NCBI GenBank assembly: GCA_904066235.2
Contig: CAJFCV020000001.1
Coordinates: forward strand, 1,798,001 to 1,862,000
Direction: 5' to 3'
DNA from: Bursaphelenchus xylophilus
Lineage: Eukaryota; Nematoda; Chromadorea; Rhabditida; Aphelenchoididae
Length of the DNA stretch: 64,000 bases
In this document: positions 39,777-61,657 of the stretch, in pieces
How the letters are laid out: the number at the start of each line of letters is the position of its first letter
Position numbering within the stretch: the first letter of the stretch is position 1
The notes under the pieces: model-generated
What the model was told of the DNA's origin: nothing
Database searches by the model: none
Seen by the model: only the letters and a program-made list of their open reading frames with translations
Made by a program: the position numbers and the translations under genes

Positions 39777-39941
39777 CTCTTTCTCCACTCAACGAAAGGT
39801 CAATAAACTGCTTTTGCAACCTCCTAGAAAGTTTGCAAGATCGCCAATAGAGGGAAACAGCGGGAATATTCAATTTAACCTCAAATTCCAACATAGTCTC
39901 ACACCAATTTCTTGATATCAACAAATTACATTACACCGCAG

Positions 39942-42108
39942 TTATAAAGTTTTATTTCCTTTACAAGTTCTATTTTTAATCGCAAAAAATTCTTTTTGCA
40001 TATCTGCGCGATTACAATGCTTGGAAATGTAGTACGGGAGGCCATCATTTGAACATCCGTTTCCTGGATTGTCAATCCCATGAAATCCATAGAGCCCAAC
40101 ACCGGCTTCAACTCTCACGATACCGGTGTAAAAGGCGTCATCAACGGGCTCGAACCTCACTTTCTCCTGGGTTTTTATCAGTTTGGCGACAGTTTCATTT
40201 GTTGTAATCACAGCGGGTCCAGAGCAGTATCGAACAAAGTTTTTATCAAGTTGTTCGTAGGAGACAAACCCGAAAAAAAAAATTTTTTTAATGGTCTAAA
40301 AGCTTTTCTATCCTAACTTCTACATTTAGCAACCTTTCATGTTGTGAAAAATTCAAATTTTAGAAATTCCGCCATTCTTGGCATTCTGTTTCAAGTGGTG
40401 TAAACGAGTCAAAACTCCATAAAATTGTGGGGAAGAACGACAAAACATACTCAACTAGAATCTATGTTCCATAGAACGACCTCATACTCCAAACTAGACA
40501 GCAAAACTTATATTATTCATCATGTATAATATAATATATTATATTCTTCAAAACGGCGGTAGGTCATCCTTACACGCCCAAACTGCGAATTGAATAGAAA
40601 TTCCAGCTAGTTTATGATCTCTTCCAGTGCTTCGGAGTTAAGAAAAATCTTATTTTTAAATTCCCGCCATTTTTTGGCATTCCGTTGCAAGGTATAATAA
40701 TCTGCCGAAATCAGGCAAAAACACAAAATAATGAAAAAATACAGCTAGAAGAGTGTAAATTAACCATTAAACTAACTATAATCCCATTTTGACAACTATA
40801 TTTATCTTATCTATCATGGCTAACATACCATTTATATTACTCACGAATGTAATGCTCTACTGGGCGCTGAATCAGTCGAAAGTGCGTTGCACACAAAATA
40901 CTCGGTCGTGTTTTTAATTATCCCTCCAAAATCGCGGTCCAGCCATTGGAAAGTGCGCTTCAAATAAATCGCGGTATCATCGTCGATTTTGATGAAAGTC
41001 TTGGCTTGCGGGCAGTGTTTCATGTGCCATTCGTGCATTGCATGCCATTTGATGTAGTTCTTGCCGTACACTTCTTCGTAATTGACAAAAATAATGTCGT
41101 CATGCGCTTTCATCTCGTCGATCAAATTTTGTTGATATTTTCGGTTCGCCGGGTATCTGCCCACAACATAACGATGAATAACATTGTGGTTGGAGGGGAG
41201 ATTTGCCTGGAAATGCGTTAAAAATAAGGGCAAATAAGGGCCAAACGCACGGTGCAGGGATCTTTTTTGCGTTGCACGGTGCGGAACTGTTTTAGTTGGT
41301 TTAAACAAACTTCAATTATTATAAAAAAAAACTCTCAAATGGTTGATAAGACATGTCAGACCCAAATTATGCAATATTAACCCAAAAAAATACTGTAGAA
41401 TTAAGTTGAGACAAAAATCATCTTATCCATCATGGATAATATAAATTTTCTGTCCAAAACAAACTCCAAAACTTACAATTTTTTTCTTATAGTTAGAAAC
41501 AGACAAAACAGGTCTCACTCTACCTAACAGTGGCAATTGCAGCCTATTCCCTTGATAAATCATCAATTTATACGGAAAAAAACAAAATGTCACAAGTTTT
41601 GGACGAAAAGTCACAAATTTTGAACGAAATGTCACAAATTTTGAACGAAATGTCACAAATCCTTGCCTTGTCGAATAACAACTTTCTCATCAATTTCCGA
41701 CGTTCCGTGTCGTCCGTAGTCAACATAGTCATGATATAAACGACCGCATCCACTCCATCGCAAACATTCTCCTTGCTCGGCCTGGTCATCTGATATTCCA
41801 CTTGATGATCTTTCAATTTCAACAGCCCGCTTTCCATTAGATTAGCCAGAAATGGATCCAATGGTCGTTCATACCGGAAGACGGACGACCATGCTCGCTC
41901 TAGAGCAAAAGGCCACAGTTCATGCTGCGTTATGCTGAGAGGAATTGAGGAAGAAGTCCAGGGAACCGAAATATAGACCACAAGTAGAATGATGCCTGAA
42001 AAAATGCTAATTAAAGCGACTAGTGATGTATGCTTCAATGTAAAGAGAAAAGTTTTGCATTTTCCACCTACCGATCAAAGGAATCAGCAAAATTTTGTTC
42101 GGATACAT
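39942..42108 (-). pseudogene. GT31 glycosyltransferase copy 1, decaying
   Basis: Same gene as the intact copy at 43914-46098. Exons 42108-42072 and 41995-41667 are preserved, as is the catalytic exon starting 41206 (KIDDDTAIYL). Two lesions follow. A ~40-bp deletion removes the exon-3 donor and the VDSKW codons; a GTGAGT nearby would keep the phase. The acceptor of the last exon has changed from CAGG to CGGG, so the exon at about 40280-39942 has no usable AG at its edge. The protein-level sequence otherwise stays close to copy 2, so the damage is recent. Confidence 0.75.
41585..41665. repeat. 21-bp tandem repeat at an intron start
   Basis: About three and a half copies of GTCACAAATTTTGAACGAAA (plus one base) directly downstream of the GC-type donor of GT31 copy 1. 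Copy 2 has one unit fewer (about 45597-45650). In frame the unit would encode a seven-residue repeat, but the domain alignment favours intron. Confidence 0.6.
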
Positions 42109-42174
42109 TTCAACGACCGGAAAAATGAAGAAAATAAAGAAAGAATTCCAATTCCAATGCGTCACACGACATTC

Positions 42175-42300
42175 TGTACTTTTGGGGCACAACCGATCTC
42201 CGCAACTTTTTCAATTTTTTTCGGAATGCGCTTGCTTTATCTCTCAACATCCCGCTAGCCGTTTGAGCTAGAAGGCTGAAATTTGGTACACGGAATATTC
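42175..42300. repeat. Dispersed repeat R4
   Basis: Inverted match of 11910-12050. It begins where the two duplicated GT31 units stop matching (about 42168), so it marks a rearrangement or insertion edge. Confidence 0.65.
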
Positions 42301-43790: not shown

Positions 43791-43913
43791 CAATAAACTG
43801 CTGCTGTAGCCTCCAGGAAAGTTTGCAAGATCTCCAGTAGCGGAATTCAACCTCAAATTCCAACAAATTCTCACACCAATTTTTTGAAATCAACAAATTA
43901 CATTACACCTCAG

Positions 43914-46098
43914 CTATAAACTTTTATTTCCTTTACAAGTTCTATTTTTAATCGCAAAAAAGTCTTTTTGCATATCTGCGCGATTACAATGCTTGGAAAT
44001 GTAGAACGGGAGGCCATCATTTGAACATCCGTTTCCTGGATTGTCAATCCCATGAAATCCATAGAGCCCAACACCGGCTTCTTCTCTCACGATACCGGTG
44101 TAAAAGGCGTCATCAACGGGCTCGAACCTCACTTTCTCCTGGGTTTTTATCAGTTTGGCGACAGTTTCATTCGTTGTAATCACAGCGGGTCCAGAGCAGT
44201 ATCGAACAAAGTTTTTATCAAGTTGTTCGTAGGAGACAAACCTGAAAAAAAATTTTTTTTAATGGTCTAAAAGCTTTTTCTATCCTAATTTCTACATTTA
44301 GCAACCTTTCATGTTGTGAAAAATTCAAATTTTAGAAATTCTGCAATTCTTGGCATTGTGTTGCAAGTGGTTTAAACGAGTCAAAACTCCATAAAATTGT
44401 GGGGAATAACAACAAAACATACTCAACTAGAATCTATGTTCTATAGAACGACCTCATACTCCAAACTAGACAGCAAAACTTATATTATTCATCATGTATA
44501 ATATAATATACTATATTCTTCAAAACGGCGGTAGGTCATCCTTACACGCCCAAACTGCGAATTGAATAGAAATTCCAGCTAGTTTATGATCTCTTCCAGT
44601 GCTTCGGAGTGAAGAAAAATCTTATTTTTAAATTCCCGCCATTTTTTGGCATTCCGTTGCAAGGTATAATAATCTGCCGAAATCAGGCAAAAACACAAAA
44701 TAATGATAAAATACAGCTAGAAGAGTGTAAATTAACCATTAAACTAACTATAATCCCATTTTGATAACTATATTTATCTTATCTATCATGGCTAACATAA
44801 CATTTACATTACTCACGAATGTAATGCCAAGACAAACAAAATAAACCTACCATTTGCTGTCGACATCTCTAATGGGCGGTGAATCAGTCGAAAATGCGTT
44901 GCACACAAAATACTCGGTCGTGTTTTTAATTATCCCTCCAAAATCGCGGTCCAGCCATTGGAAAGTGCGCTTCAAATAAATCGCGGTATCATCGTCGATT
45001 TTGATGAAAGTCTTGGCTTGCGGGCAGTGTTTCATGTGCCATTCGTGCATTGCATGCCATTTGATGTAGTTCTTGCCGTACACTTCTTCGTAATTGACAA
45101 AAATAATGTCGTCATGCGCTTTCATCTCGTCGATCAAATTTTGTTGATATGTTCGGTTCGCCGGGTATCTGCCCACAACATAACGATGAATAACATTGTG
45201 GTTGGAGGGGAGATTTGCCTGGAAATGCGTTAAAAATAAGGGCAAATAAGGGCCAAACGCACGGTGCAGGGATCTTTTTTGCGTTGCACGGTGCGGAACT
45301 GTTTTAGTTGGTTGAAACAAACTTCAATTATTATAAAAAAAATTCTCAAATGGTTGATAAGACATGTCAGACCCAAATTATGCAATATTGACCCAAAAAA
45401 AATACTGTAGAATTAAGTTGAGACAAAAATCATCTTATCCATCATGGATAATATAAATTTTCTGTCCAAAACAAACTCCAAAACTTACAATTTTTTTCTT
45501 ATAGTTAGAAACAGACAAAACAGGTCTCACTCTACCTAACAGTGGCAATTACAGCCTATTCCCTTGATAAATCATCAATTTATACGGAAAAAACAAAATG
45601 TCACAAATTTTGGACGAAATGTCACAAATTTTGAACGAAATGTCACAAATCCTTGCCTTGTCGAATAACAACTTTCTCATCACTTTCCGACGTTCCGTGT
45701 CGTCCGTAGTCAACATAGTCATGATATAAACGACCGCATCCACTCCATCGCAAACATTCTCCTTGCTCGGCCTGGTCATCTGATATTCCACTTGATGATC
45801 TTTCAATTTCAACAGCCCGCTTTCCATTAGATTAGCCAGAAATGGATCCAATGGTCGTTCATACCGGAAGACGGACGACCATGCTCGCTCTAGAGCAAAA
45901 GGCCACAGTTCATGCTGCGTTATGCTGAGAGGAATTGAGGAAGAAGTCCAGGGAACCGAAATATAGACCACAAGTAGAATGATGCCTGAAAAAATGCTAA
46001 TTAAAGCGACTAGTGATGTATGCTTCAATGTAAAGAGAAAAGTTTTGCATTTTCCACCTACCGATCAAAGGAATCAGCAAAATTTTGTTCGGATACAT
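43914..46098 (-). CDS. GT31-family glycosyltransferase (copy 2, intact)
   Basis: Four exons, 46098-46062, 45985-45657, 45218-44851 and 44241-43914, join in frame for 353 residues. Residues 1-25 form a type II membrane anchor (MYPNKILLIPLIG then IILLVVYISVPW), as in Golgi glycosyltransferases. Hallmarks of the beta-1,3-galactosyltransferase-type family follow: the DIIFVNYEEVYGKNYIKWHA block, the metal-binding DDD (residues 197-199, KIDDDTAIYL), KWFVSYEQLDKNFV, YCSGPAVI and the EPVDDAFYTGIV motif. Donor and sugar specificity cannot be told. The second intron starts with GC instead of GT (ACAAG then GCAAGG), also in copy 1. It lies in a tandem duplication with BTB genes B and C. Confidence 0.88.
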
Positions 46099-46226
46099 TT
46101 CAACGACCGGAAAAATGAAGAAAATAAAGAAAGAATTCCAATTCCAATGCGTCAGTCATTATGTGAAGTCAGACTACCTTCATTTCAGGCTGTAACGGAA
46201 GTTTACACGTTGCAACGCGTTGTTTC

Positions 46227-46653
46227 CAGGGGTGGTCAGTGGGCCGGGCCGGCCCGTGACGGGCCGGCCGGGCTCAAAAATGGAAAATTACAAACGGGCC
46301 GGGCCCGTCTAAATTACAATGCCAAACCGTTGGCATTCATTGCTTTCGCGCCGGGAAAATTAATTGATGTTGTTATAGTTGCTTTTTCTCAAGTTCTAAA
46401 ACGTTTACAAGTCTATAGTTCCATTATAAAACCACAAAACTATCACATTGATCCTTTACTAGCTATATCAACGCCTTTTTTGCCTAAGTTTAGATCCCAA
46501 GCTTGGGCGCAGTTCGCAGAACCCTCTATAAACGGGCCTGCACGGGCCGGGCCGGGCCTGGAAAAAGACTAGACGGGCCGGGCCGGGCCGGTAATTAGAC
46601 GGGCCGGGCCGCGGGCCGAAAATCGGAAAAATAGGGTCCGCTGACCACCCCTG
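46227..46653. mobile_element. hAT-like GC-rich element H3
   Basis: 427 bp, same ends and interior as H1 and H2, flanked by a perfect 8-bp duplication GTTGTTTC (46219-46226 and 46654-46661). It lies 113 bp before the start codon of BTB gene E and just outside its TTGAC motif. Confidence 0.92.
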
Positions 46654-48271: not shown

Positions 48272-49598
48272 ATGCCGGACTGTTGCGCCACGTGCAAGAA
48301 AGAACTTGAAGAACAGATAAACAGGTTACGAGGTGGTTTTTTGTTGTGAATAATATTTTTTTAGACAAGGTGAGTCAAATTCCCGAAGTTTCAACGCATT
48401 TGTTTGGAAATCCGAGCTTCAGCGACCTCCGAGTGAAAGCGGGAAACACAACTTTTTACGTAAGCCATTCTTCAACATATTTTTTTTACACTTTTAGGTT
48501 ACAAAATACCTAATGGGACTCAAGTCCAAGATCTTCGAGGAAACTATTCTTGAAGGATCGAGAGATGGGGCTGATAACGTTTTGAGGCTGCATGAAGATC
48601 CTGCTGTGGTCGAGGCAATGCTGGAGTACATATGCTTGCAGAAGAAGGTGAAGGGAAGCGAGTTAGCGGCAAAGGTTGTGCAACTGGCCAATCGTTACGG
48701 AATCGATGATCTCAAAGTGAGTATTGAAGAATTATTTGTTGAAGTTTAGGTTTATAGATGCTCGAATACTTGAAAAATCCTATAAATGCGTTTCTATCCT
48801 AGTCGTAACACGGTGTTTTTGGTTTCAATCAGTTTTTATATTATCCATGGGTAAAGTTATTGTTTCTTTGTAAACTATTTTTTCTGCTGTTGAAAACAGG
48901 CCGTTTCTTTTTTAATGAGCAAGAATAGGTCTTAATAAGATTTGTGGCTTTAGTTTCGACTAAATTCTTTGCTTATAATTTATTTATTTGAGGTGATTTT
49001 AAACGACCACCTAAAATAATGTTTTTTGATTTGTTAGGATCAATGTGAATTGGAGCTGCTGGATAATTTGACGTTCGAAGATGCCCATGCTAATCTGCAA
49101 ATCGCGTATCAAGAAGGTCTCTCGGTTTTGTATTGGAAATGCAGCGAGCTCATCTACCACAACTTCACAGGACTGGAGAAATATTCCGTAGAAAGCGAGA
49201 TTGTGGAACAACCTGAACCAGGTAGGGCGTGGAGGGCATTTGAAATTATTTTTGAGCATATTTTCAGTTCCGATTGGTCCTATTTTCACCTTCACGCCAG
49301 ACACCGTCATCCTTACTACGATCCACGGAAAAGTTGCTTCTGACCATAGAGAACTAACCATAGTTCCGTCGACATTGTCTACAAAGTTTATGGATCCGTG
49401 ACTTCGTCCAGAGGCTTCGAAATTCTGGGCCCAGGCGAAACTTTTCGACTTGGCCCACACTCTCTAAATCAACTTACATTTCGGTCCGATGAGGCTTTCG
49501 TTTACTACGCACCATACGTCAAAGACCCTACGATCGACTACCAACGACTTCATCTGCTCCCAAACGCTCAATTTCTACGTTTGAAAGTCAGGAGATAA
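48272..49598 (+). CDS. BTB protein F, frameshifted in MSP-like exon
   Basis: Exons 48272-48332, 48365-48459, 48498-48716, 49038-49221 and 49268-49598. The start is MPDCCATCKKE. The BTB region is intact (GNPSFSDLRVKAG, KYLMGLKSKIFEE, LANRYGIDDLK), and exon 4 begins DQCELELLDNLTF. The last exon starts in frame as a MSP-like domain (PIGPIFTFTP), but one base is missing near 49345. The original frame hits TGA at 49399-49401; the shifted frame continues the domain (NHSSVDIVYKVYGS onward) to TAA at 49596-49598. Either a recent 1-nt deletion or an assembly error. If real, the product is a BTB protein with half a MSP-like domain. AATAAA follows near 49688. Confidence 0.8.
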
Positions 49599-49760
49599 GA
49601 TTTTGGTTAATTTATGTTGTTATGATGTTTGATATCGCTATTTTTGCTGTTTGTCTAACTTCTCAATTATCCATTTTTACATATTTTCAATAAATATATT
49701 GTCTGAGTGGATTTGAGCTGTTTTTTGGTAGAATTCCTGGTCATACTGTAGGGGGGTCAG

Positions 49761-49792
49761 AGTTGACCCAAAATGCAGAAACGAGTCAAGTG
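49761..49792. promoter_or_regulatory. TTGAC/GTCAA motif upstream of gene G
   Basis: AGTTGACCC and GAGTCAAGTG lie in inverted orientation about 15 bp apart, 62 bp before the start codon. Weaker than the sites of B, C and F. Confidence 0.35.
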
Positions 49793-49853
49793 TTTCTCTA
49801 CAGGAAGTTGTTGAGAAGAACAAGGTTTGGGTGTGTTATTGCCCGAGATAGCA

Positions 49854-52800
49854 ATGCCAGGCTGTTGTTCTAGCGCCTGTGCGCGTAAACCGCTGCTAGA
49901 TGAGCGGATTCAATCTTTGAGGAGTAAGTTTTGCCAAAATTTGACATATGATATTATCCATGACGAGTTTATTGTAAAAACTAGCGTGAATCTTTGGTTA
50001 AGCGCTATGATTCGCTGCAAAATGATGTAAAAAATTTCAATGAACAGTGTAGGATGAATTAGGCCTCTTTTTTCTGTTGAGTTGTGATGTTTTTTTTTAT
50101 TATAGATAAGGTCAATGCAAGACAAGAGATTCGGAACGATTTGGTTGGAGATCCTGCCTTTAGCGATTTCCAAATCCGGGCCCAAGGCGTCACCTTTTAT
50201 GTGAGTTGTATTCTATTCGTTTTTATCTTGATTTTTAGGTTGTCAAGTATCAATTAGCCTTGAAGTCGAAGGTGTTTAAAGATCTATTCAAATCGAACAG
50301 CAATGAAGTCCTGCAAGGAGTATTGGAGCTGCATGATGACCCTGATGCAGTGAAAGCTGTGCTCGATTACATCTTTCTGTACAAAAAGGTCGAGGGATGC
50401 GAATTGGCTGCAAAAGCTCTTCAACTTGCGCATCGTGGCGAAATGATTGAACTCAAGGTAGGTATAGCGTAAAATTGCATGTATTTTTGCTTGGAATAGA
50501 GCTTTTGGGTGGTAAAGAATGTTTTGAAATCGATTTTGAGCCAGAATTACATCACATTTTTGAGTTACGAAGATTTTGCTATATTGTTCATGCCTAGAAT
50601 AAAAAAATTCTTTTTTAGGAGCAATGCGAATTGGAGCTGTTGGATCATTTGACACTCAGAGATGCCCCGTACGTCCTGGAGTTGGCTCGTAGCTATGGGT
50701 TGTCAATTTTGTTCGCAAAATGCGTCGAATTTCTTTTCTACAACTTTGAAGAGTTCGAGGTATTCGAACCAGAAAGTAAGTGTTTAGCCTATTAATTTTT
50801 TGGCTTTTAGATAAAACAGTGATTTGGTTGGTTGATGTATGATCTGAGCTTTAATATAATGCCATAATTTCAGTTCATCCCGCTCCATTGGCTCGTCCGC
50901 AACCAGGTGAAGGTAGGAGAACATAATTTTTTTGATGGAGCTACCTGAATTTTGATTTTCTTTGGATTAACTGTTTGAAGTAGCCAAATATTGTGTGATC
51001 GCTACTTTAAAGCGTATTTTACTCGAATATTTTTAGCTCGTCCAGCTCCGCCAGCCGGTCCGCCACCTGTTCGAGGTAGGGTAATATAATTGCTTCTAGC
51101 TGCCTAAAATCGTCCTTGCTGTTGGGGTTTTTTGGGCTGATTGCCTAGAATATTATCTAATCTGTTGTTTGGATGGTATTTAGGGCTGAAATTTTGATTT
51201 TTTGCATTAGAAAAAAGGGTAATATAACTTTTCGCTCAAAACTCGACGAACCTCGATTTTTATTGGCTGATTTGCTAATATAAGTTAGAATATGATATAT
51301 TGAATAGTTTAAAAACGTAATGGACCTCATAATTTCAGAGAATCAGAGGCCACAGCCAGTTTTTGAACCTCATGGTAAGCTGATGTTATTCTGAATAGAA
51401 ATATGTGATTTTAATCTGAAACCCCTTGATTCCCTGGTAATTCGAATTTAAATTTCTAGCCCGACGCATGATGGATCCGTTCCAGGACGCGGAAGGACTG
51501 GCTGCCGCTTATGATCACTTTGAAATCCAATTTTTACCTCAAGAAGAAGGTAAAATGTTGTGATTTTGGTAGAAAAGGTTGATGAAATTTTTGTGCGAAA
51601 TAGAAGGGAGAGGGGGTTATTTGCGGTATTAAAAGAATTTGCTTAATGAGAGCTCGAATTGGATCATTTTATATTGACCATGATGGATAATATAATTTTT
51701 GTTATAGAATGGTTTAGTGTTGCTTTATTGATGCTTAGTTGATCGAATTAAGTCCATTGAAATTTATTTTTGGTTTTAAATTGAATCTTATTTAGTAGAA
51801 AATTTAGTTATATTATCCATGATGGATAAGATAGTTGGTGTCATAAATAAGGTCGCGGATTTTTTTAATCGCAAAACATGTTAATATAAGCCGGTTGACA
51901 ACTTATTTGAAGAAAATTTTATGTGGAAGGAGGTTATTTCAAGTTTTGACAAACAAAATATTATTCATGATGGATAAGTTCATTTTTGTTGAGATTTTAG
52001 CCCGTAGACAAGCCTATGTTGACTTGAATAATCCGGAAGGTGAACAAATCAATGAGCCGCAAGATGAGAGTGATATTTTTGAGGATTTGAGAGGCGAAAA
52101 TGTTCAAGGATTGGATGAATTAGGTCCTGAAGAGGAGGCAGAAAACGATGAATCTGAGGAAGAAGAGGATGGCAATGAAAATGAACAAGCTTGTAGGATT
52201 ATTTTTGACCTTTTTTTTTGACTGGTTCGAATTGTATTAGAAGGTATTGATTTTTTAGATTCTCCTGAAGATCTTCTGGTCGCTGCGCTTGTTGAAGGTA
52301 AGTTTTTTCTCTTTGATTTTTTTTGGTTTTTAGGGAGATGATCTTTACTATTGAGGTCCGCAAAATGTTCCACGCAAAAGTCGCAAAGATATACGAGCAT
52401 TTTTTCGCTACCCGTCTCTCTTCATTCTGCGTGTTCTATCAAAAAATTATTGCATGGCGTCTTTGCGGAAGGTGAGTCCCACGAGCTCAAATTTTGTCGG
52501 GATCAATGTCAGACCAATACTAGTCCGTTCGTAAAGTCGCTGAAGTGATTTTTGACGTTTGCACTGTGTAAAAAAAAGTCAGAGTGCGAGTGACAGCCCA
52601 AAAAAGCCTATTGCACGGTGCAAAAAACAAGAAATTGCACAGTGCAAAGTGAACTTTTGTTTTTGCACACTTGCTGGAGTGATTTCGGCGACATGCACTG
52701 TGCGAAAACAAAATTTTACTTTGCACTGTGCAATTTCTTGCTTTTTGCACCGTGCAATAGGCTTTTTCGGGCTGTCGCTCGCACCTCTAATTTTTCGCAC

Positions 52801-55800
52801 AGTGCAGACGCCAAAAATCCCTTCAGCGACTTTGCGTACGGACTAGTATTCGTCAGACATTGATCCTCACAAAATTTGAGCTGTGAGACTTATCTTCCGC
52901 TGAGATACCACGCACGTCAATCCAGCGCATTTCCTGAACCGTTTCGAAACTTCGTGTCATCTTCATTGATTTAATTAGAGAGACGAAATGTCGCGAAGTT
53001 ATCGGCACTTTCTCTCGCCCGAAATAATTGCTTCTTCTCGAAAAGAAAGAAAAAAGATAAGAAAATGCTTTTTTATCGGATAGTGACATTTCGTTTTGAA
53101 CGAATCTCCAAAAAGGGGCGGGAAATTTTTTCTTCTATTTTGGATTGACGTGCCACGCAATATTTTTTCGAGAGAACACGCAGAATGAAGAGAGACGGGT
53201 AGAGAAAAAAATGTTATTATTTCTTTGCGATTTTTGATGATTGGAAGGAAAATTTTGCGGACGTTATTTCTATTTTTTGAGGAATCGACCAAAACGAAAA
53301 GGATAAAATCGCTGAAGAAATCAATGATGATAACAAAGAAGTATCTGACGGACCAAATCACAGTGGTTTCAGAGAGCATCTCAAAAAAGTTGAAGAAAAT
53401 GCCGAATTGGATGCTGATCATGACAAAGAACAGTTTTCCGGGGAATGTATTGAGAACGAGGAGCAAAAAGAAGGTGAAATTTTTATATTATTCATGAAGG
53501 AGAAGGTATTTTTTATGGGGGAAATGGTTATAATTTGATGATTGAGTGGCAAGCGAGTGTGAAATAATGTATAGGAGGACTTGTGAACATTTTTTTTAGG
53601 AATTTTGTGTCGAAGCATGGAAGAACTTCATATTGATGACTCTTTGAAAGAAAAAACAGAGAATGATGGAAAACAGGATGATGAGAGCGACTCCGGCGAA
53701 GCCGCGGACTTTGAGGATGAAGATGAGGAAGAAAGTTAGTTGTTGGGATATCGAATTTTGGGGCGATGTTATACTAGATCTGGAGATGACAAAAAATTTT
53801 TTTGAAGACGGTTTTTTTTTTGTTATAAGGATCGAAAATAGCCATGGTTAGATGTAGTAAATGTTTTTGGGGGTTTTTAAAGAGGTTACGGAGTAATTTT
53901 GTCGAAATTTTTTAGCTCCTCCCACCTCACCACTCACCGATAAATTCGAGGAAAATCAAGTTTTGGACTCTCAAAATCAAGCTCAGAACCAAGATAAAAC
54001 CCTCGAAGCAGTCGATGAAGACCGAACTCCTTATGTTTCGCTGTGCAATTTGCCTTCCCCGCCCGTCAAGGGTAGGATAATATATTTTTTTTTTATGAAA
54101 ATTTGATTTTTTTCTTTTTTTTTTTTTTTTTTTTTTTTTTGAAGATTAGTGGATTTTGGAAGCAGAAATTCACTAAAATTTTCCAGGAGATGATAAGGAG
54201 AATATTGAAGAGAAGACTGACGATCAAGAATATGGAGATTTTTTTACTTTCAACGGAGAAAAAGTGAAGGGTAAGATGAGGGGAAATTGGAAGTGAAAAC
54301 TGAGGAGTTGGTTGAAAAAATTGGCCAGGATGCCTTTCAATTTGACATTCGGTGTTTTGAGATTTTTTATTATTTTTTTAGTTTTTATTTTTATTTTTTT
54401 TTATTTTTGTTTTATTTTGTTATGTTGATTTCAGTGTCCCCCGTGAGGTTTGCCAAAGTTGAATCAGGTAGGATCATTTTTATTTTTTCCGTTTTTAGAT
54501 ATTTTTTTATTTTTTGAATTTTTTGTTCAGTCCGGCCGAGAGCTTTGGTCTTCCCGGACACCACGGAAGAAAGTCAAACCCACTCGGAGCAAGACGCCTC
54601 CGAAGAAATTCCACCGGTTTTGGAGGATGAAAAAGGTATAAAAAGTCAGACTTTTTTGGTCAAGCGTTGAAAAAAAAATGAAAAATTTTTCCGTATTTTG
54701 TAGATGTTAGGCCTAAAAGATGACAAAAAAATCCGATTTTTCTTCGATTTGTGAGGCTAATTTTTTTGTCTGTCGGGAAAATAATGTGCACTCTGTCGCA
54801 TCGAAAATCGCGTCGCCGTCGAGAAAACGAATTTTGTCTCGGCAGGAGAAAATTGATTTTTCACTTCGGCGACACGATTTTCGATGCGACAAAGTGCTCA
54901 TTATTTTTCCGACAGACAGAAAGTTTGCGTCACAAATCGAAAAAATCGGTTTTTTGTCATTGTTTAGGCCTAACATGTACAAAACACGGGCAATTTTTTT
55001 CATTTTTTTTTTTTTTTTTTTTGCAGAAGGTGAGCATTCGGACGATGAAAAAGCCACACCTTTTGTTCGGCAAATCAGAGAAAGGTACGATAACCCTGCG
55101 ACGAATTTCCGAACCGACGAAGAGGGTCTGGACAGTTCGCCGGACGATATTGAAGAAGAATTTCTGAGATTCTACGAGGGAAATTTTCCTGGTAAATTTT
55201 GGAGAATTTTTTTTTTTTTTTGAATTTTTTTTTTTTTTTTTAAATATTTTTTCAACGCCAATCGATGATTTCGCAGACGAGAATGAAGCCAGCGCCATTG
55301 AGGGCGACGAAATGTACGCAAATATTGACAAATGGAACCTCGTCGAAATGACATTTGAAGAATATCAAAAGTACTCGGATTGGAAGGAAAGAAAGGACCA
55401 ACAAATGAAGTCGAAAACTCCTAAAACAGGTAAGAGGTTTGGAAAGGAGGAAATTTATTTTTGATTTTTTTTTTTGAAAAATTTTTTTGGAGTACCTAAA
55501 ATTTGATGAGGATTACTTTTCGACAAACTTGGCCTAAATTTTTTATGCATTTTTTGGCAAATTGGGAATTTTTAGCTATTGATTTGCTAAGTTTCGGAGA
55601 TCTAGGGGGTTTTTTTGAGATTTATTTTTTCCGAGGTACCTGAAATTTGATGGGATTTAATTTTCAACAGACTTGGCCTCATTTTTTTTATGGATTATGG
55701 GCATTTTGGAAATTTTTGGCTATTGATTTGCTAAATTTTCCGGCATTTTTAGACGAAAAATTTTTACAAATTTCGGATTTTTTTTTTGCGATTTTTGACT

Positions 55801-57697
55801 TGGAAATGTTTGGGTTAACAAGAGCTCATCGGTTATCTAATTGTGTAAAAAATCGCTTTTCCCCGGGCAAAATGCAAAAAGTTATAGCGAAAAGAAGTTT
55901 TTGTCTGACCACTCTCCGCATTTTGTATACTCTCTCGTAAAAAGCTTGATGAAAATCACAGCGCTTGGCGAAGAGCAGGTCTAAATTTTTAGGGAATAAT
56001 ATATGGGCTAGTCAGAGTATAGGTTTAGAGTTTGAAGAGAATTGGGGAGTCGCAATGGGTTACTGTAACAGAATTACAGATATAAAATGAAAAGTTTATG
56101 TCAAAAAATGATGATCTTTCAGCTTTCGCTGGACTCTACAAGTCGAAAACCAGCCGCAAGTCCAAACCCAAGCCCAGCAATGCGAGGCCGGTCGAACAGC
56201 CCCAACCGAAAGTTGAGGCAAATAATGTAAAAGGTAGGCCAAGCTGAAAAGAAGTGATTTTCTGATTGGTCGAGGGAGAAATAGGTAATAAGAAGAGGAA
56301 TGGGATGCAGTAGAACTGAGAAAAAATATAAATTGAAATAATGCGACTGGAAAAGGATATAGGAATTTTAAGATATTACTTTAGGCAGTGTGGTCATGAA
56401 TAATATAGAAAATGGTAACAAAGCTTGGAAATTTTTGGTAAGACGTAAGGTAAATTGCCTGAAAAGCCATATTGAAGCTTTTGGAGGGGATAAAAATTAG
56501 GTGTGCTAGAGAAAATATCGTTTTAGACGAGTATGTCATGGATAATATAAAATTCATCATGTTGGGTTAGGTAATAAAAAAGATAGTATTTTCAATTTGA
56601 CACTGGTCCTAAGAGGAATTTAGCACCTAATTTAAGTTTAATTTCAGCATCCGCGGCTTCCATGTTTGCGCCAGCGCCAGATGCTTCAGCTCAAGGTAGG
56701 AAAATATATTTTTTTTTTGAAAAAATAGCCCTTTCGATCGGTTTTTCGACGCATTGCTGGTTCAGTAATAAGTTTTGTTGCTTGAAAAGTAATATGGAAG
56801 CTTTTGGTGGGGGTGTAAAACCAGGGGGTACTTGGCAAAATATTGTTTTAGACAACTATGTCATGGATAATATAAAATTTATCGTAGTGGGTGAAGTAAT
56901 AAAAAAAGATAATATTTTTTATTTTACACAGATCCTAAGAGTAATTTAGAACCTAATTTAACCTTAATTTCAGCTTCGACGTCTTCTAGGTTTGCGCCAG
57001 CGCCAGTTCATCCAGGTCAAGGTAGGATAATATAAAATCCATCATATTGAGTGAAGTAATGAAAAATGATAATATTTTTAATTTTACACTGGTCCTACAT
57101 GTATTTTCGAGCCTAATTTAACTTTAATTTCAGCTTCGACGTCTTGTAGGTTTGCGCCAGCGCCAGTCGCTCCGACCCAAGGTAGGATAATATAAAATTT
57201 ATCGTAGTGGGTGTCGTAATAAAAAAATATTGTATTTTTAATGTTACACTGGCCCTAAGGGGAATTTAGAGCCTAATTTAACTTTAATTTTAGCATCGAC
57301 GTCTTCCAGTTTTGCGCCATTAACAGTTGATCCGGATAAAGGTAGTGTAATATTATTTTTTATTTTTCATTCATTCGAATGTTTGACCCACTCTTAATTA
57401 TAACCCGTTTCAGCACCCCCTCTGCTCACTGCCTCCAGAAGAGGTCAGTCCATTGTGAAATCGCGCCTCAGCGGCTTTTCTGTCAAGAATCAGAACACCT
57501 ATCCGCTCGTCTACCAACTCTACAGGACAAACAACAACCCCTCCCAATTTTACATCATCCAACCAACGCGCAGTCAATCCGTCATAACCGACGAAGGCAC
57601 CATATTTTTCGCGAAGTACGAAGCGAACGGAAATTATGACTATAGCCGACTTTGTGACCATCCAAACGCAAAAGTTTTGCAGCTGAAGAAAGATTAG
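49854..57697 (+). CDS. Giant BTB / MSP-like protein G (24 exons)
   Basis: The family exons come first: 49854-49923 (MPGCCSSACARK), 50106-50200, 50239-50457 and 50619-50775, giving BTB and BACK-like parts to about residue 180. Then 19 exons: 50874-50912, 51037-51075, 51339-51374, 51460-51549, 52001-52192, 52259-52297, 53282-53473, 53600-53734, 53916-54071, 54187-54270, 54435-54467, 54531-54635, 55027-55191, 55277-55429, 56123-56233, 56648-56695, 56974-57021, 57134-57181 and 57294-57341. Each is a multiple of three and starts and ends in phase 1. Exon 57414-57697 adds the MSP-like domain. Total 861 residues. The linker is Pro-rich first, then strongly acidic, then basic and PAP-rich, with no known domain, probably disordered. 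Introns hold M1, M2 and M4 elements. Exon choice is mine; no transcript evidence is available. Confidence 0.82.
52513..52853. mobile_element. Inverted-repeat element M4 in gene G intron
   Basis: About 340 bp with ends ATACTAGTCCGTTCGTAAAG and its near complement, and several GCACTGTGC palindromes inside. Fragments of the same ends occur near 3112 and 15740. Confidence 0.75.
52908..53157. mobile_element. MITE of family M2 in gene G intron
   Basis: 250 bp with ends CCACGCACGTCAATCCA and TGGATTGACGTGCCACGC. Inverted copy of the M2 element at 34507-34748. Confidence 0.8.
54708..54977. mobile_element. M1 core inside longer inverted repeat, gene G intron
   Basis: An M1 core at about 54768-54918 is flanked on both sides by a further ~55-bp inverted repeat (GTTAGGCCTAAA, then GATGACAAAAAAATCCGATT on the left). 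It is either a nested insertion or a longer relative of M1. Confidence 0.7.
56648..57341 (+). repeat. Array of four 48-bp exon copies in gene G
   Basis: Exons 56648-56695, 56974-57021, 57134-57181 and 57294-57341 are each 48 bp and encode variants of ASTSSRFAPAPVxPxQ. The last three start exactly 160 bp apart and their introns are alike too (TAATTTAACTTTAATTTCAG before each). The unit is exon plus intron, so growth was by tandem duplication. Confidence 0.88.
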
Positions 57698-57928
57698 AGG
57701 AAAGAGTTTTTTGGTCCTCGGTTATCTCAGAACTACCTCAACATATTTGTTTTACTTGTTTTTGTTAATATCCAATATTTGTTTTGTGGTTAATATAATA
57801 AAATTTTAAAAAAGCGTCATGGATAATATAATGGGTTTGAAAGGTTGATAAAATTTTTGCGTTTCGAGTTTTGAAATCGCTTTAGGGCACGATTACTGTA
57901 GTTTCGTTGTAAAACCAGGGAGTGAAAG

Positions 57929-57949
57929 ACTTGACCCGAGCTGTCAACT
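57929..57949. promoter_or_regulatory. TTGAC/GTCAA motif upstream of gene H
   Basis: ACTTGACCCGAGCTGTCAAC, an inverted TTGAC/GTCAA pair 60 bp before the start codon. Confidence 0.45.
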
Positions 57950-58008
57950 GTTGCGTTTGACCAAAAAGTTGGTGCAATTTTGGGCGTTGCTCAGTTGCTT
58001 GCCGCAGA

Positions 58009-59813
58009 ATGAACAAGAAATGCTGTTCACGAAAACGTGAAGTGCAGTATCAAATAAGCGCTTTGAGAGGTAATCCTTTACAGCAAGCCCGGTTAGATAA
58101 TGACCCTAGCGAAAATTGGTTGCTCAATCTTACTTGATCGATCCCGATGATCGATTATGATGTAGATAGGACAACCAGGAGATCTCCGATGATTTTAACA
58201 GGTTTTATAGATAATATTCAATATTTTCAGTCGTTTTATTGATAATCTTGTTTTACAGCGAAGGTGAACAAGAACCGGAGAAGGAGGATCGATTCTTCAA
58301 TAATCCCACGTTCAGCGACTTTCGAATCAAAGCCGGAAGCGAGACCTTTTATGTAAGTCGTATTTTATAGTTTTCTATTCCAAATTTAGACTACAAAACA
58401 TCAATTGGCTTTGCAATCCGAGGTCTTTGCAAGAATGTTTGAATCAAAGATGAAGGAGGCGACTGAAGGCGTCTTGGAACTTCCCGACGATCCAGAGGCA
58501 GTGGAAGCGATGTTGAAACACATTTCGATGTACAAAAAGGTGGAAGGAGGCCAATTGGCAAGAAAGGTTCTTCAAATCGCACATCGTTATGAACTTTCTG
58601 AACTCAAGGTTTGTATTGTGCAATATTATTGGGTTTTCTTGTTGAAAAGTTTCGTTATTAGGTGTACAAAGAGACTAATCAGTTTCTGGGGCCGAACTCA
58701 GTCGGTATTTTTAGTTCTCGGTCTTTTTTAATGTTATACTAGGCCATTTTTGTGTTACATTGATTTTTTGGATATTTAGGACCAATGCGAGCTGGAAATC
58801 ATTGATAAATTGTCGGCGGAAGATGTCCGAGAGAGTTTTCGAGTGGCCGATCAACTGGAACTCCCGCTTTTGCTCTTGAAATGCTGTGAATTCATCTATT
58901 ACGGCAGTCAAACCGACAACACGAAGACCGAAGGTATGGTGTTGATTTTTGGATGAAGTGAATTTTGCAGTGATTTAAAATTTCATTTCAGTTGTGGATT
59001 TTACGGTTAGTCGCCACCAGAATGGTATTGAGTACAATGTTACCAACAATTCTGATGTTACTGTCGGCGCACGTCAAGAAAAAATAAAACAAAAGCGCTC
59101 AAGCAATGAAAAATTCTTGGCATTCTGTTTGATCTCAAAGACAATTTTTTGCGATAAAGATAGCCTGATTACACGATGAAGATGGGGTAGAATGGGGTTA
59201 TTGCATACATAAATTTGAAGCTGGGCTCCTGCTTAACCTGAACATATATATTTCATATAAAAAATCGGTCGTCTTCTATCTGTTTGAAGCCTAAACTAAC
59301 AACGCCTAAAAAATGTTGCGATTTCGAGGATTTCTCTAAGATTTTCCCTCGCCCCTATTTGAAGTTTCGTGGAAACATAGTCTGGAACAAGGCGGATTTT
59401 TTGAGCCTAAAACGAAAAAATCAAATGAGCCAGTTTCGAGATAGAAAATCTCTTCATTTTGCGCAATATTTCGCCTTTCCTCTGACCTCGTCCAAAAAAA
59501 CTGTCATTGAGACGGATTTTTTGGACACTTCCGTAAGCGGAAACAGAATGCCAACTTTCGTGTTGATACATAACCCTTTGAGCGCAAAATCTTGACGTGC
59601 GGCGTTTTACGTCCGGAAAGTGAAAATCGTTTAGATAACCCTAAATTCTACTCCTTTCACCCACATGTAACTTATGCTTTACATTACGACCGTTTGTCAA
59701 GACGAGGAGATCAAATTGGATTTTTTTATGTTTCATACGAAATTGCTTCGCAGGGTTACAATTACCACGAACTTTTATCAAAAGCACAGTTCATGCCTGT
59801 AGTGGAGGCCTGA
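58009..59813 (+). pseudogene. BTB gene H, interrupted by an element
   Basis: Exons 58009-58069 (MNKKCCSRKRE), 58259-58352, 58390-58608, 58780-58933, then a last exon from about 58992 to 59813. Exon 2 is 94 instead of 95 nt because one C is missing after AACC. Using an AG five bases downstream of the normal acceptor would restore the frame (R-GEQEPEKEDRF). The BTB exon is intact (KHQLALQSEVFARMF). The MSP-like exon is split after DVTVG by a 530-bp insertion at 59070-59599. Without it the frame would continue to the TGA at 59811-59813; with it a stop comes near 59179. The donor of exon 3 is weak (GTTTGT). Best seen as a recent pseudogene that may still make a BTB-only protein. Confidence 0.82.
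59070..59599. mobile_element. 530-bp insertion with 5-bp target duplication
   Basis: Ends CACGTCAAGA and TCTTGACGTG, flanked by CGGCG on both sides (59065-59069 and 59600-59604). Removing one duplication plus the element restores the MSP-like reading frame of gene H. The ends resemble those of M2 (CACGTCAATCC), so the families may be related. The longest inner frame is part of no known protein. Confidence 0.85.
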
Positions 59814-60072: not shown

Positions 60073-61657
60073 ATGGCGGGCAAAATGCGATCTTCTGTTG
60101 TGTCGGTGGACCTGTCCGTCTCCTCGGACTGTTGTTCGCGTAAAAGAGACGTGGAAGGAAGGCTTAAAGCGCTTAAAGGTAAGTTTTGACGTCTCATGTT
60201 ATCCATGGTAAAGTAGATCAAAATATCCTTTGTCTCAAAGGTTTATAGGGCGGAAATGGTTTTCTAGAGTATTTTTAGGTATTTGCTACTATATAGATTA
60301 AAAGTTCACAGGATTTAGCCGATTTGTTTTGATTTTTAGTAGTTGTTTTATTTTTCAGAGAAGGTGATCAAGAATCCCGAGAAAGAAGACCGTTTGTTCG
60401 GCGATCCGTACTATGCCGACTTCAAAATTAAAGCTGGACGCAGAGTCTTTCATGTAAGTTGTATTTCACTGATTTTTATTCCAATTTTAGATCGCAAAAT
60501 ACCAATTGGCGCTGAAGTCCGTGGTCTTTGAAAGGCTGCTGAAATCGGACATGAGAGAGTCGAATGAAGGTGTTCTCAAGCTCGACGATGGTGCTGATGC
60601 GGTGGAGGCCATGCTCAAGTTTGTCTACATGTATACCCCAGTGAAAGGAGGCGAGTTGGCGAGGAAAGTTATTCAACTTGCACACCGATACGAGTTGGAG
60701 GAACTGAAGGTGAGTGTTTTACGCAATATTATTGATTCTTAGAGAAGATTTGGTGTGTTATTGTCTATAGAAAGTCATGACGTCCCTTTTGAGCTTGTGT
60801 TTGGTGGGAATTTTTGACATTTCATTTTTTATATTGTACATGACTAAGTTTGGAAAAATGAGAAATTTAAGTTTGTTAATTTGAGTGAAGTCGTTTAGAA
60901 GCTAGCCCACTGGACTAGAGTGTACTTGAAAAAAACTAGATTTTTTGGTTTTTGCGCATTTACGATGTTATATTACACATGATAATTTTTGATACCAAAT
61001 TTTGTTATATTGGGCTTCTAGCAAGAAAGATATGGTGCAATTTCCTGTATTTGCATTTCAACATCATTTCCCACCTCTTCAGGTTCGCTTTAAATTATTT
61101 ATGAGAATTTTTTATATTACACTTGACATTGAACTCAAATTTTCGAATTTCAGGACCAATGCGAGCTGGAGATTATCGAAACACTAACCATGGAGGACGC
61201 CAGAGACAGTCTTTTGCTCGCAAATCAGTTGGAACTCCCACTTTTGTTCACCAAGTGCAACGAATTCCTCTACTTCAACTTCGACGACTTCAATAACAAC
61301 AACGATGTGGTTGTGGTCGACCTGGAGGCGCCGCTCAAAATCTCGGTCGAACCGAACGAAATCCTCCTGGTCCAGGGCCAACCCAAATCCCATCACAAGA
61401 TCAAGAATCACAGCAGTGTGGAGATTGCCTACAAATTTTGCGTCCGCTCCCCCGGCTTCAACGGCTCCATTTTCAAGGTGGTTGGGCCGAAAAAGGCGCA
61501 CGACTTTTATTTCACCGACTTTTTGGCCTTCAACTTTGTCCACAAGGTCGGGATTTATTATGTGGAGCATGTGAAGAACAAGTGCATCGACTACACCAAA
61601 CTGGATGCCTTCCCAGACGCCAAATTCATCCCCTTGCATCTGAAACTTGCCTATTAA
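60073..61657 (+). CDS. BTB protein I with C-terminal MSP-like domain
   Basis: Four exons, 60073-60178, 60359-60453, 60491-60709 and 61154-61657, give 307 residues. The first exon has ~18 extra N-terminal residues before the family motif CCSRKRD. BTB spans about residues 40-140 (FGDPYYADFKIKAG, KYQLALKSVVFERLL, LAHRYELEELK), and a BACK-like part starts DQCELEIIETL. The MSP-like part is about residues 200-307, with ISVEPNEILLVQGQ, HHKIKNHSSVEIAYKF and VGIYYVEHV. Here the last two family exons are fused, so the intron before the MSP-like part has been lost. This is the cleanest complete member and the best reference for the family. Confidence 0.9.

What the first reader, a model, noticed from the sequence alone, without database searches (positions are those of the whole stretch)
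49854..57697. A BTB gene swollen by about 19 phase-1 exons between its BTB and MSP-like ends
Gene G keeps the family's first four exons and last exon, but 19 further exons lie between them. All are multiples of three (33 to 192 nt) and in phase 1 at both ends, so any can be added or lost without breaking the frame. The family's usual BTB/MSP boundary is itself phase 1, so it could accept such exons. This looks like growth of a long acidic, disordered linker by exon duplication and recruitment in one paralog. I know of no described protein with this layout, though that is not proof of novelty.
Basis: partly seen in the sequence, partly recalled or inferred. Interest (0 to 1): 0.85.

Follow-up and report, generated by a model that had tools for sequence, protein, structure and literature searches.

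The report
Protein tether grown inside one intron
In an assembly that matches the pine-wood nematode, one gene of a small family reads as 24 exons instead of about five; the 19 extra exons all keep the reading frame and likely arose inside a single intron, giving a protein predicted to carry a 587-residue acidic, flexible tether between two binding domains, so the gene would be a readable record of how a protein linker grows.

Summary
Gene G (49854-57697) reads as 24 GT-AG exons and 861 residues; exons 5-23 (33-192 nt) are multiples of three and phase 1 at both ends. A splice and codon model trained on relatives, free to choose phases, returned 19 of 19 (18 at the strictest setting); score 150.5 against at most 38.2 in 100 shuffles. 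The genome fits Bursaphelenchus xylophilus Ka4C1, whose genes average 4.5 exons. No second copy of the linker was found. Exons 20-23 lie in a 160-bp tandem array; donors of exons 5, 6, 13 and 20-23 share a rare 15-mer, so these seven likely share descent; the other 12 are untraced. The array unit starts at a genome-wide intronic motif resembling the donor: likely microhomology. Sibling F, grouped with G on the tree, has a 46-nt intron there. G and F lack the hydrophobic Cul3-contact residue; 17 of 21 rows keep the motif, so G is likely no ordinary Cul3 adaptor. The C-terminal domain is MSP-like in predicted fold; Pfam does not confirm it. No RNA evidence: two genes, or a decaying gene, remain possible.

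The parts
49854..49923 (+). G exon 1 (start codon; N-terminus MPGCC)
   Evidence: homologous to exon 1 of siblings
50106..50200 (+). G exon 2 (95 nt, as in most siblings)
50239..50457 (+). G exon 3 (219 nt), BTB core; Cul3-contact position reads S-N-E
50619..50775 (+). G exon 4 (157 nt), end of BTB and 3-box-like part; ends in phase 1
50874..50912 (+). linker exon 5, phase 1-1, Pro-rich; donor of the shared 15-mer clan
51037..51075 (+). linker exon 6, phase 1-1, Pro-rich; donor of the shared clan; weakest exon (dropped at penalty 8)
51339..51374 (+). linker exon 7, phase 1-1
51460..51549 (+). linker exon 8, phase 1-1; holds ATGATG, a possible alternative start
52001..52192 (+). linker exon 9, phase 1-1, acidic
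52259..52297 (+). linker exon 10, phase 1-1
53282..53473 (+). linker exon 11, phase 1-1, acidic
53600..53734 (+). linker exon 12, phase 1-1, acidic
53916..54071 (+). linker exon 13, phase 1-1; donor of the shared 15-mer clan
54187..54270 (+). linker exon 14, phase 1-1
54435..54467 (+). linker exon 15, phase 1-1 (33 nt)
54531..54635 (+). linker exon 16, phase 1-1
55027..55191 (+). linker exon 17, phase 1-1
55277..55429 (+). linker exon 18, phase 1-1
56123..56233 (+). linker exon 19, phase 1-1
56648..56695 (+). linker exon 20, first copy of the 48-nt duplicated exon
56974..57021 (+). linker exon 21, 48-nt copy
57134..57181 (+). linker exon 22, 48-nt copy
57294..57341 (+). linker exon 23, 48-nt copy
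57414..57697 (+). G exon 24, MSP-like C-terminal domain and stop codon
56539..57353 (+). four repeat units (spacing 326, 160, 160 bp), each intron tail + 48-nt exon + donor; a search with one unit matched only these four places
56446..56906 (+). duplication with 323-325 bp spacing (56446-56581 and 56769-56906) that brackets exon 20
   Evidence: D11, D13
51669..51970 (.). three copies of the genome-wide intronic motif (TTATATTATCCATGA type, up to 3 mismatches) at 139 and 148 bp spacing in intron 8
   Evidence: (D10)
57797..57802 (+). AATAAA 100 nt after the stop; others on this strand of the gene lie in introns 3, 19, 20 and 22, none from exon 4 to exon 19

Best explanation
Gene G reads as one 24-exon member of a BTB/MSP-like gene family, most likely of Bursaphelenchus xylophilus, whose 19 extra exons, all phase 1 at both ends, likely arose inside the single phase-1 intron that separates the BTB part from the last exon in some sibling genes. 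Shown: the exon chain in the sequence, its phases, the 160-bp tandem array of exons 20-23, the shared donor 15-mer of exons 5, 6, 13 and 20-23, and that no second copy of the linker was found. Inferred: the array grew by unequal exchange or slippage at a microhomology (8 of 9 bases) between the exon donor (GTAGGAAAATAT) and a genome-wide intronic motif just upstream (CATGGATAATAT), so each step copied one acceptor, one exon and one donor and could not break the frame. Inferred: the product is a BTB dimer with two MSP-like domains on long acidic, flexible tethers. As the hydrophobic Cul3-contact residue is lost, it would act as a scaffold or sequestering protein rather than as an ordinary Cul3 substrate adaptor. 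Untested: transcription, alternative exon use, partners.
For: Exon model and phases. 19 of 19 exons recovered without a phase constraint by a model trained on relatives, far above shuffles and the reverse strand. Linker exon GC 0.47 against 0.32 in introns. No other linker locus at E below 0.7. Array matched only in G. Donor 15-mer at 2 mismatches or fewer: 391 in 78.25 Mb (backward control 292), about 0.03 expected in 6.6 kb by that density; 7 are G linker donors, 7 of the window's 8 hits; array copies reduce this to four independent donors (exons 5, 6, 13, 20). Donor-flank pairs at 60% or more: 13 of 120 in G with array copies collapsed, against 1 of 252 sibling pairs of different introns. 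Motif CATGGATAATATAA: 1204 genome copies against 1 for the backward control, in tandem units of about 135-146 bp in loci read. Siblings B and F have 40- and 46-nt introns at the site; F groups with G (95/88). BTB: Pfam 40.6 bits, SPOP E 6e-7. phi-x-E kept in 17 of 21 rows; G reads SNE, F SRD; phi buries the most surface of any residue at the Cul3 interface (PMC3616122, passages).
Against: No transcript evidence. Exons 5-7 and 21-22 lack a codon-frame signal, and chains forced through other phases at both ends score nearly as well (146.7 and 140.4 against 150.5). Among exons 21-23 exons are no more alike than their introns (71-83% against 81-84%); in the three pairs with exon 20 they are more alike than the ungapped introns (69-77% against 63-68%, a one-base offset lowering the latter); dN exceeds dS in 2 of 6 pairs, so selection on these exons is not shown. 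12 of 19 exons show no common descent with any other. The 15-mer was taken from G itself, after the fact. The microhomology is read from one array, and the motif is in only 5 of 23 introns at 3 mismatches or fewer. By plain identity G's BTB is nearest to A (56%), with F at 50%; G and F are long branches and 8 of 18 inner branches are open. The C-terminal domain falls just on the disordered side by charge-hydropathy. Only one genome was available, so gain against loss rests on parsimony. Cul3 binding was not tested.
Confidence: 0.65

Rival explanations
1. Two genes: a short BTB gene (exons 1-4, perhaps to 7) and a separate acidic gene that starts at ATGATG in exon 8 and ends with the MSP-like exon.
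For: Exons 5-7 are short and without codon-frame signal, and the first exons of the chain can be exchanged at small cost; exon 8 holds ATGATG near its start, and read-through of exon 4 meets a stop after six codons.
Against: The two ends match the first four and the last exon of one family, in family order. Donors of exons 5 and 6 belong to the same clan as those of exons 13 and 20-23, so the clan spans the would-be boundary. No AATAAA from exon 4 to exon 19 (other signals not sought). The chain keeps exons 5 and 7 even at penalty 8, with low scores of 2.0 and 1.8.
Confidence: 0.15
2. Intron insertion: the linker was once one or a few long exons, later cut up by introner-like elements that carry the shared donor and the dispersed motif.
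For: The shared similarity is strongest at intron starts, and a dispersed intronic motif exists genome-wide.
Against: The introns around and between the linker exons are all phase 1; at the share of two phase-1 introns in four seen in siblings A, B and F that is, by arithmetic, of the order of one in a million. Exons 20-23 are duplicated together with their introns. Introns between linker exons run from 63 to 984 nt. No long uninterrupted linker was seen in the relatives read.
Confidence: 0.08
3. The long linker is ancestral and was lost from the other family members, perhaps through reverse-transcribed or recombined copies.
For: Only one genome was examined; some members (I, the C1:5.08-Mb cluster) have no intron at all at the site, so intron gain or loss occurs in the family.
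Against: Siblings B and F have short introns and no linker; no linker trace was found elsewhere in the genome.
Confidence: 0.06
4. G is a decaying gene: the last exons multiply neutrally and the protein is not used.
For: Near-neutral exons 20-23; siblings C and H have one-base losses in exon 2 and F a frame change in its last exon; loss of the Cul3 contact.
Against: All 24 exons are open with GT-AG sites; coding signal is strong in the longer linker exons; the C-terminal domain still folds in prediction (pLDDT 83). Sibling indels may be assembly errors (Nanopore with Pilon).
Confidence: 0.12

Closest known systems
SPOP and other BTB + 3-box Cul3 substrate adaptors
   Same: BTB plus following helices align to SPOP chains (E 6e-7 for G, 1e-8 for sibling I).
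   Different: No MATH domain found; C-terminal MSP-like domain; phi of phi-x-E replaced by Ser in G; 587-residue linker.
MSP/VAP domain proteins (nematode MSP, SSP-19, WR4; VAP, MOSPD2)
Schistosome micro-exon genes and the composite VAL-6
   Same: Many small symmetrical exons; VAL-6 has a portion of such exons beside its VAL part (PMC4350168, passages).
   Different: Micro-exon genes are described there as restricted to platyhelminths and as secreted or membrane-anchored; G is a nematode BTB gene with exons up to 192 nt.
Titin PEVK segment (recalled, not from a call)
   Same: Disordered elastic linker built from many small symmetrical exons by duplication.
   Different: Muscle giant protein; no relation in sequence is claimed; here the growth sits in one small family gene.

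Membership tests
BTB/POZ (PF00651) | Pfam match above the curated cut-off | tested here: met
   40.6 bits against 20.5, residues 41-137
Cul3 BTB adaptor of SPOP/KLHL type | BTB followed by a 3-box/BACK-like helical part | tested here: met
   PDB sequence match to SPOP over query 39-171, E 6.2e-7
Cul3 BTB adaptor of SPOP/KLHL type | phi-x-E Cul3-contact motif | tested here: not met
   G reads S-N-E, F S-R-D; 17 of 21 rows keep it; motif as in PMC3616122 (passages)
Cul3 BTB adaptor of SPOP/KLHL type | MATH or Kelch substrate domain | tested here: not met
   BTB is the only Pfam family listed for G at E up to 10
MSP domain (PF00635) | Pfam match above the curated cut-off | tested here: not met
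   no match in the last exon of G; sibling I 17.3 and 16.2 bits, one other relative 14.5, against 25.9; two further relatives none
MSP domain (PF00635) | MSP fold | tested here: inconclusive
Micro-exon gene (schistosome MEG) | most of the coding region in very small symmetrical exons | tested here: inconclusive
   19 of 24 exons symmetrical phase 1-1, but 33-192 nt
Micro-exon gene (schistosome MEG) | signal peptide, secreted or membrane-anchored | not tested
   no signal-peptide program was run; the N-terminus MPGCCSSACARK shows no obvious hydrophobic stretch
Micro-exon gene (schistosome MEG) | alternative splicing of the small exons | not testable with these tools
   no RNA data

The most novel reading that the evidence does not exclude
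The splice donor of the linker exons and a genome-wide intronic repeat motif of this nematode share a microhomology, so the process that lengthens introns by units of about 140 bp in many genes also makes new in-frame exons whenever a unit includes one: an intron repeat acting as an exon factory that turns intron growth into protein-linker growth, caught in the act in gene G.
Probability: 0.22. Interest if true: 0.78.

Novelty: new variant of a known kind. Interest (0 to 1): 0.6.

Why it matters
B. xylophilus is reported to average 4.5 exons per gene, the fewest of the nematodes compared (PMC3164644, passages), so a 24-exon member of a family with about five exons is extreme. If confirmed, it is a stepwise case of a protein gaining a disordered linker: the short intron of siblings, related but diverged donors, a middle duplication and a tandem array can all be seen in one locus. 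It would make the origin of long linkers testable by comparing strains and sister species, and would show how a BTB adaptor family can lose its Cul3 contact and take on another role.

Tried and rejected
The protein database timed out four times; the fifth ask, with the last exon alone, found no candidate. The linker as recruited from other genes: no second locus found (query exon 6 to the end; only best candidates are scored, and short exons of G itself were missed; the one off-locus row, C2:5967377, has E 0.77 and matches the C-terminal part). The dispersed motif as special to G: rejected, it is genome-wide. RNA families: none reach the gathering score in 49700-58000. Bacterial promoter scan of 50700-51600: not meaningful for a nematode, not used. 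Foldseek of both models gave no match at E 0.001 or below, and its first row for G was a designed protein, with MSP chains from rank 16; the MSP reading rests on VIA-align and on models from 5-row alignments. Tree rows: 21 products typed by hand; near copies or partial places (the second genes of L031 and L033, the first of L026, the middle one of L024, L027) were left out, and C, L024c, L025a and L026b had exon 3 only. Papers, listings only unless said: BTB with 'major sperm protein domain' and nematode, 0 papers; B. xylophilus with BTB, 11, none on such a gene by title; BTB with 'MSP domain' and nematode, 2, both on C. elegans; symmetrical exons, 8; Cul3 motif, 5; micro-exons, 54 with 8 listed; titin PEVK, 0; MATH-BTB selection, 3; intron and exon duplication terms, 84 with 8 listed; genome size, 3. 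Read: PMC7561696 whole; passages of PMC3616122, PMC4350168 and PMC3164644. On re-checking, the confidence went from 0.66 to 0.65, because the plain identities and the forced-phase scores were weaker than I had first written.
Full report
Setting. The window is G000:C1:1798001-1862000 of an assembly of 78,253,340 bases with a largest contig seen of 15,101,617. These numbers fit B. xylophilus Ka4C1 v5: 78.3 Mb, largest scaffold 15,101 kb, N90 12,140 kb (C2 here is 12,140,115), built from Nanopore reads with Pilon polishing (PMC7561696, whole text). The species name is my inference from the numbers.

The observation. One search gives 24 exons and 861 residues. Exons 1-4 (70, 95, 219, 157 nt) match the first four exons of the siblings in order and closely in size, and exon 24 (284 nt) aligns with their last exon. 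The 19 exons between them are 33-192 nt, all multiples of three and all phase 1 on both sides.

Is it chance or reading bias? I trained codon scores on 65 BTB-family segments (5,572 codons; the background counts used the whole window, G included) and splice scores on 26 donors and 23 acceptors of sibling genes. A chain of exons was then sought between the donor of exon 4 and the acceptor of exon 24, with all internal phases free. The score of 150.5 (penalty 6) compares with a mean of 19.4 and a maximum of 38.2 in 100 dinucleotide shuffles, and with 12.9 on the reverse strand. Forced to start and end in phase 0 or 2, the best chain switches into phase 1 for 15 of 21 and 16 of 22 exons; its scores, 146.7 and 140.4, are close to 150.5, so the outermost two or three exons on each side are weakly fixed while the middle is firm. 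In the frame test the model's frame is best in 14 of 19 linker exons (8-20 and 23); exons 5, 6, 7, 21 and 22 are not decided. Exon GC is 0.47, intron GC 0.32.

Only this gene, as far as tested. The sequence from exon 6 to the end (668 residues) finds no other place in the genome at E below 0.7; the search scores best candidates only and missed several short exons of G itself. Relatives of the BTB part lie in the window, at C1:5.08-5.11 Mb and at a few places on C1, C2, C3, C5 and C6. After exon 4 the donor is phase 1 in A, B and F; the intron is 40 nt in B and 46 nt in F, and A's last exon was not found. E and H came out in another phase as typed, C was not modelled to its end. On a tree of 21 BTB rows G and F group together (95/88), but both are long branches, 8 of 18 inner branches are open, and by plain identity G is nearest to A (56%) with F at 50%.

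How the exons arose. Exons 20-23 lie in four units with spacings of 326, 160 and 160 bp; a search with one unit matched only these four places. A duplication with 323-325 bp spacing brackets exon 20. The donors of exons 5, 6, 13 and 20-23 match AAGGTAGGATAATAT at 2 mismatches or fewer: 7 of the 8 hits of the window and 7 of 391 in the genome (backward control 292), where about 0.03 would be expected in 6.6 kb. At 1 mismatch or fewer it is 4 of 51 (control 8). The word was taken from G after the fact, and array copies reduce the seven to four independent donors. Donor flanks of different linker exons are alike at 60% or more in 13 of 120 pairs, against 1 of 252 pairs of sibling introns at different positions. 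An unbroken run of phase-1 introns is what growth within one phase-1 intron must give, and what scattered intron insertion would not. For the other 12 linker exons I have no trace of origin.

A likely mechanism. The array unit begins with GGATAATATAAAAT. Upstream of exons 20 and 21 this is preceded by TCAT (a copy of a motif, CATGGATAATATAA, with 1204 genome copies against 1 for the backward control); after exons 21 and 22 it is preceded by GTA of the donor. The donor of exon 20 (GTAGGAAAATATAT) and the motif agree at 8 of the 9 bases GGATAATAT. The joint of the duplication therefore lies where donor and motif agree, which is what unequal exchange or slippage at a microhomology would leave. 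Four loci were picked because the motif recurs there: L038, L040 and L041 show it in tandem within what look like introns, L039 the same spacing without an evident gene. Of the first 100 of the 1204 places, all on C1, 13 same-strand neighbours lie within 600 bp, and 8 of these are 134-146 bp apart. This step is inferred from one array; G carries the motif in 5 of 23 introns at 3 mismatches or fewer.

Against this reading. There is no RNA. Among exons 21-23 the exons are no more alike than the upstream introns (71-83% against 81-84%); in the three pairs with exon 20 they are more alike (69-77% against 63-68%, ungapped and offset by one base). dN exceeds dS in 2 of 6 pairs. Several siblings are out of frame (C, H, F), through decay or assembly error. 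Two genes remain possible because exon 8 has an ATGATG. I give this 0.15.

Known or new. Growth of a protein by small symmetrical exons is a known kind: schistosome micro-exon genes and VAL-6 (PMC4350168, passages), and titin PEVK (recalled). A BTB/MSP-like gene with such a linker was not found in the searches. I file it as a new variant of a known kind.

Noticed in passing
genome-wide; window 51669-51970, 56394-57195, 60829-61130; L038, L039, L040, L041: Motif TTATATTATCCATGA / TCATGGATAATATAA: the 14-mer CATGGATAATATAA occurs 1204 times in the genome against 1 for the backward control, often in tandem units of about 135-146 bp, in three of four loci read within apparent introns; the spacing is close to nucleosome size. 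Function unknown.
   Followed up: partly
L031 2347-3081 and 6296-7129 (C3:10.949-10.954 Mb): Two BTB relatives end in a zinc-finger-like part instead of the MSP-like domain; the one scanned matches Pfam zf-UBP (E 9e-10): a C-terminal domain swap within the same BTB family.
   Followed up: partly
window 43175-43082, 58259-58352, 49268-49598, 58992-59813: Siblings C and H are one base short in exon 2, F changes frame in its last exon, and the last exon of H seems split by about 500 bp; decay or residual assembly error cannot be told apart here.
   Followed up: partly
window 52375-53240 and 54650-55010: Nested inverted repeats (foldback, MITE-like elements) sit in introns 10 and 16 of G, outside the exons.
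   Followed up: no
window 39900-42260 and 43900-46230: Two nearly identical segments with a galactosyltransferase-like open frame (name recalled, not tested) beside siblings B and C: a segmental duplication, seen in the ORF list.
   Followed up: no
exon 1 of A, B, C, F, G, H, I (for example 35590, 39679, 48272, 49854, 58009): In 7 of 8 window members (not E) the N-terminal exon carries a Cys-Cys pair (MSNNCC, MPDCC, MPGCC, MNKKCC), which could be a lipidation site.
   Followed up: no
window about 35.6-35.8, 43.4-43.5 and 46.6 kb; L026 4370-4600: A GC-rich GGGCCGGGCC-type repeat lies next to several of the BTB genes.
   Followed up: no
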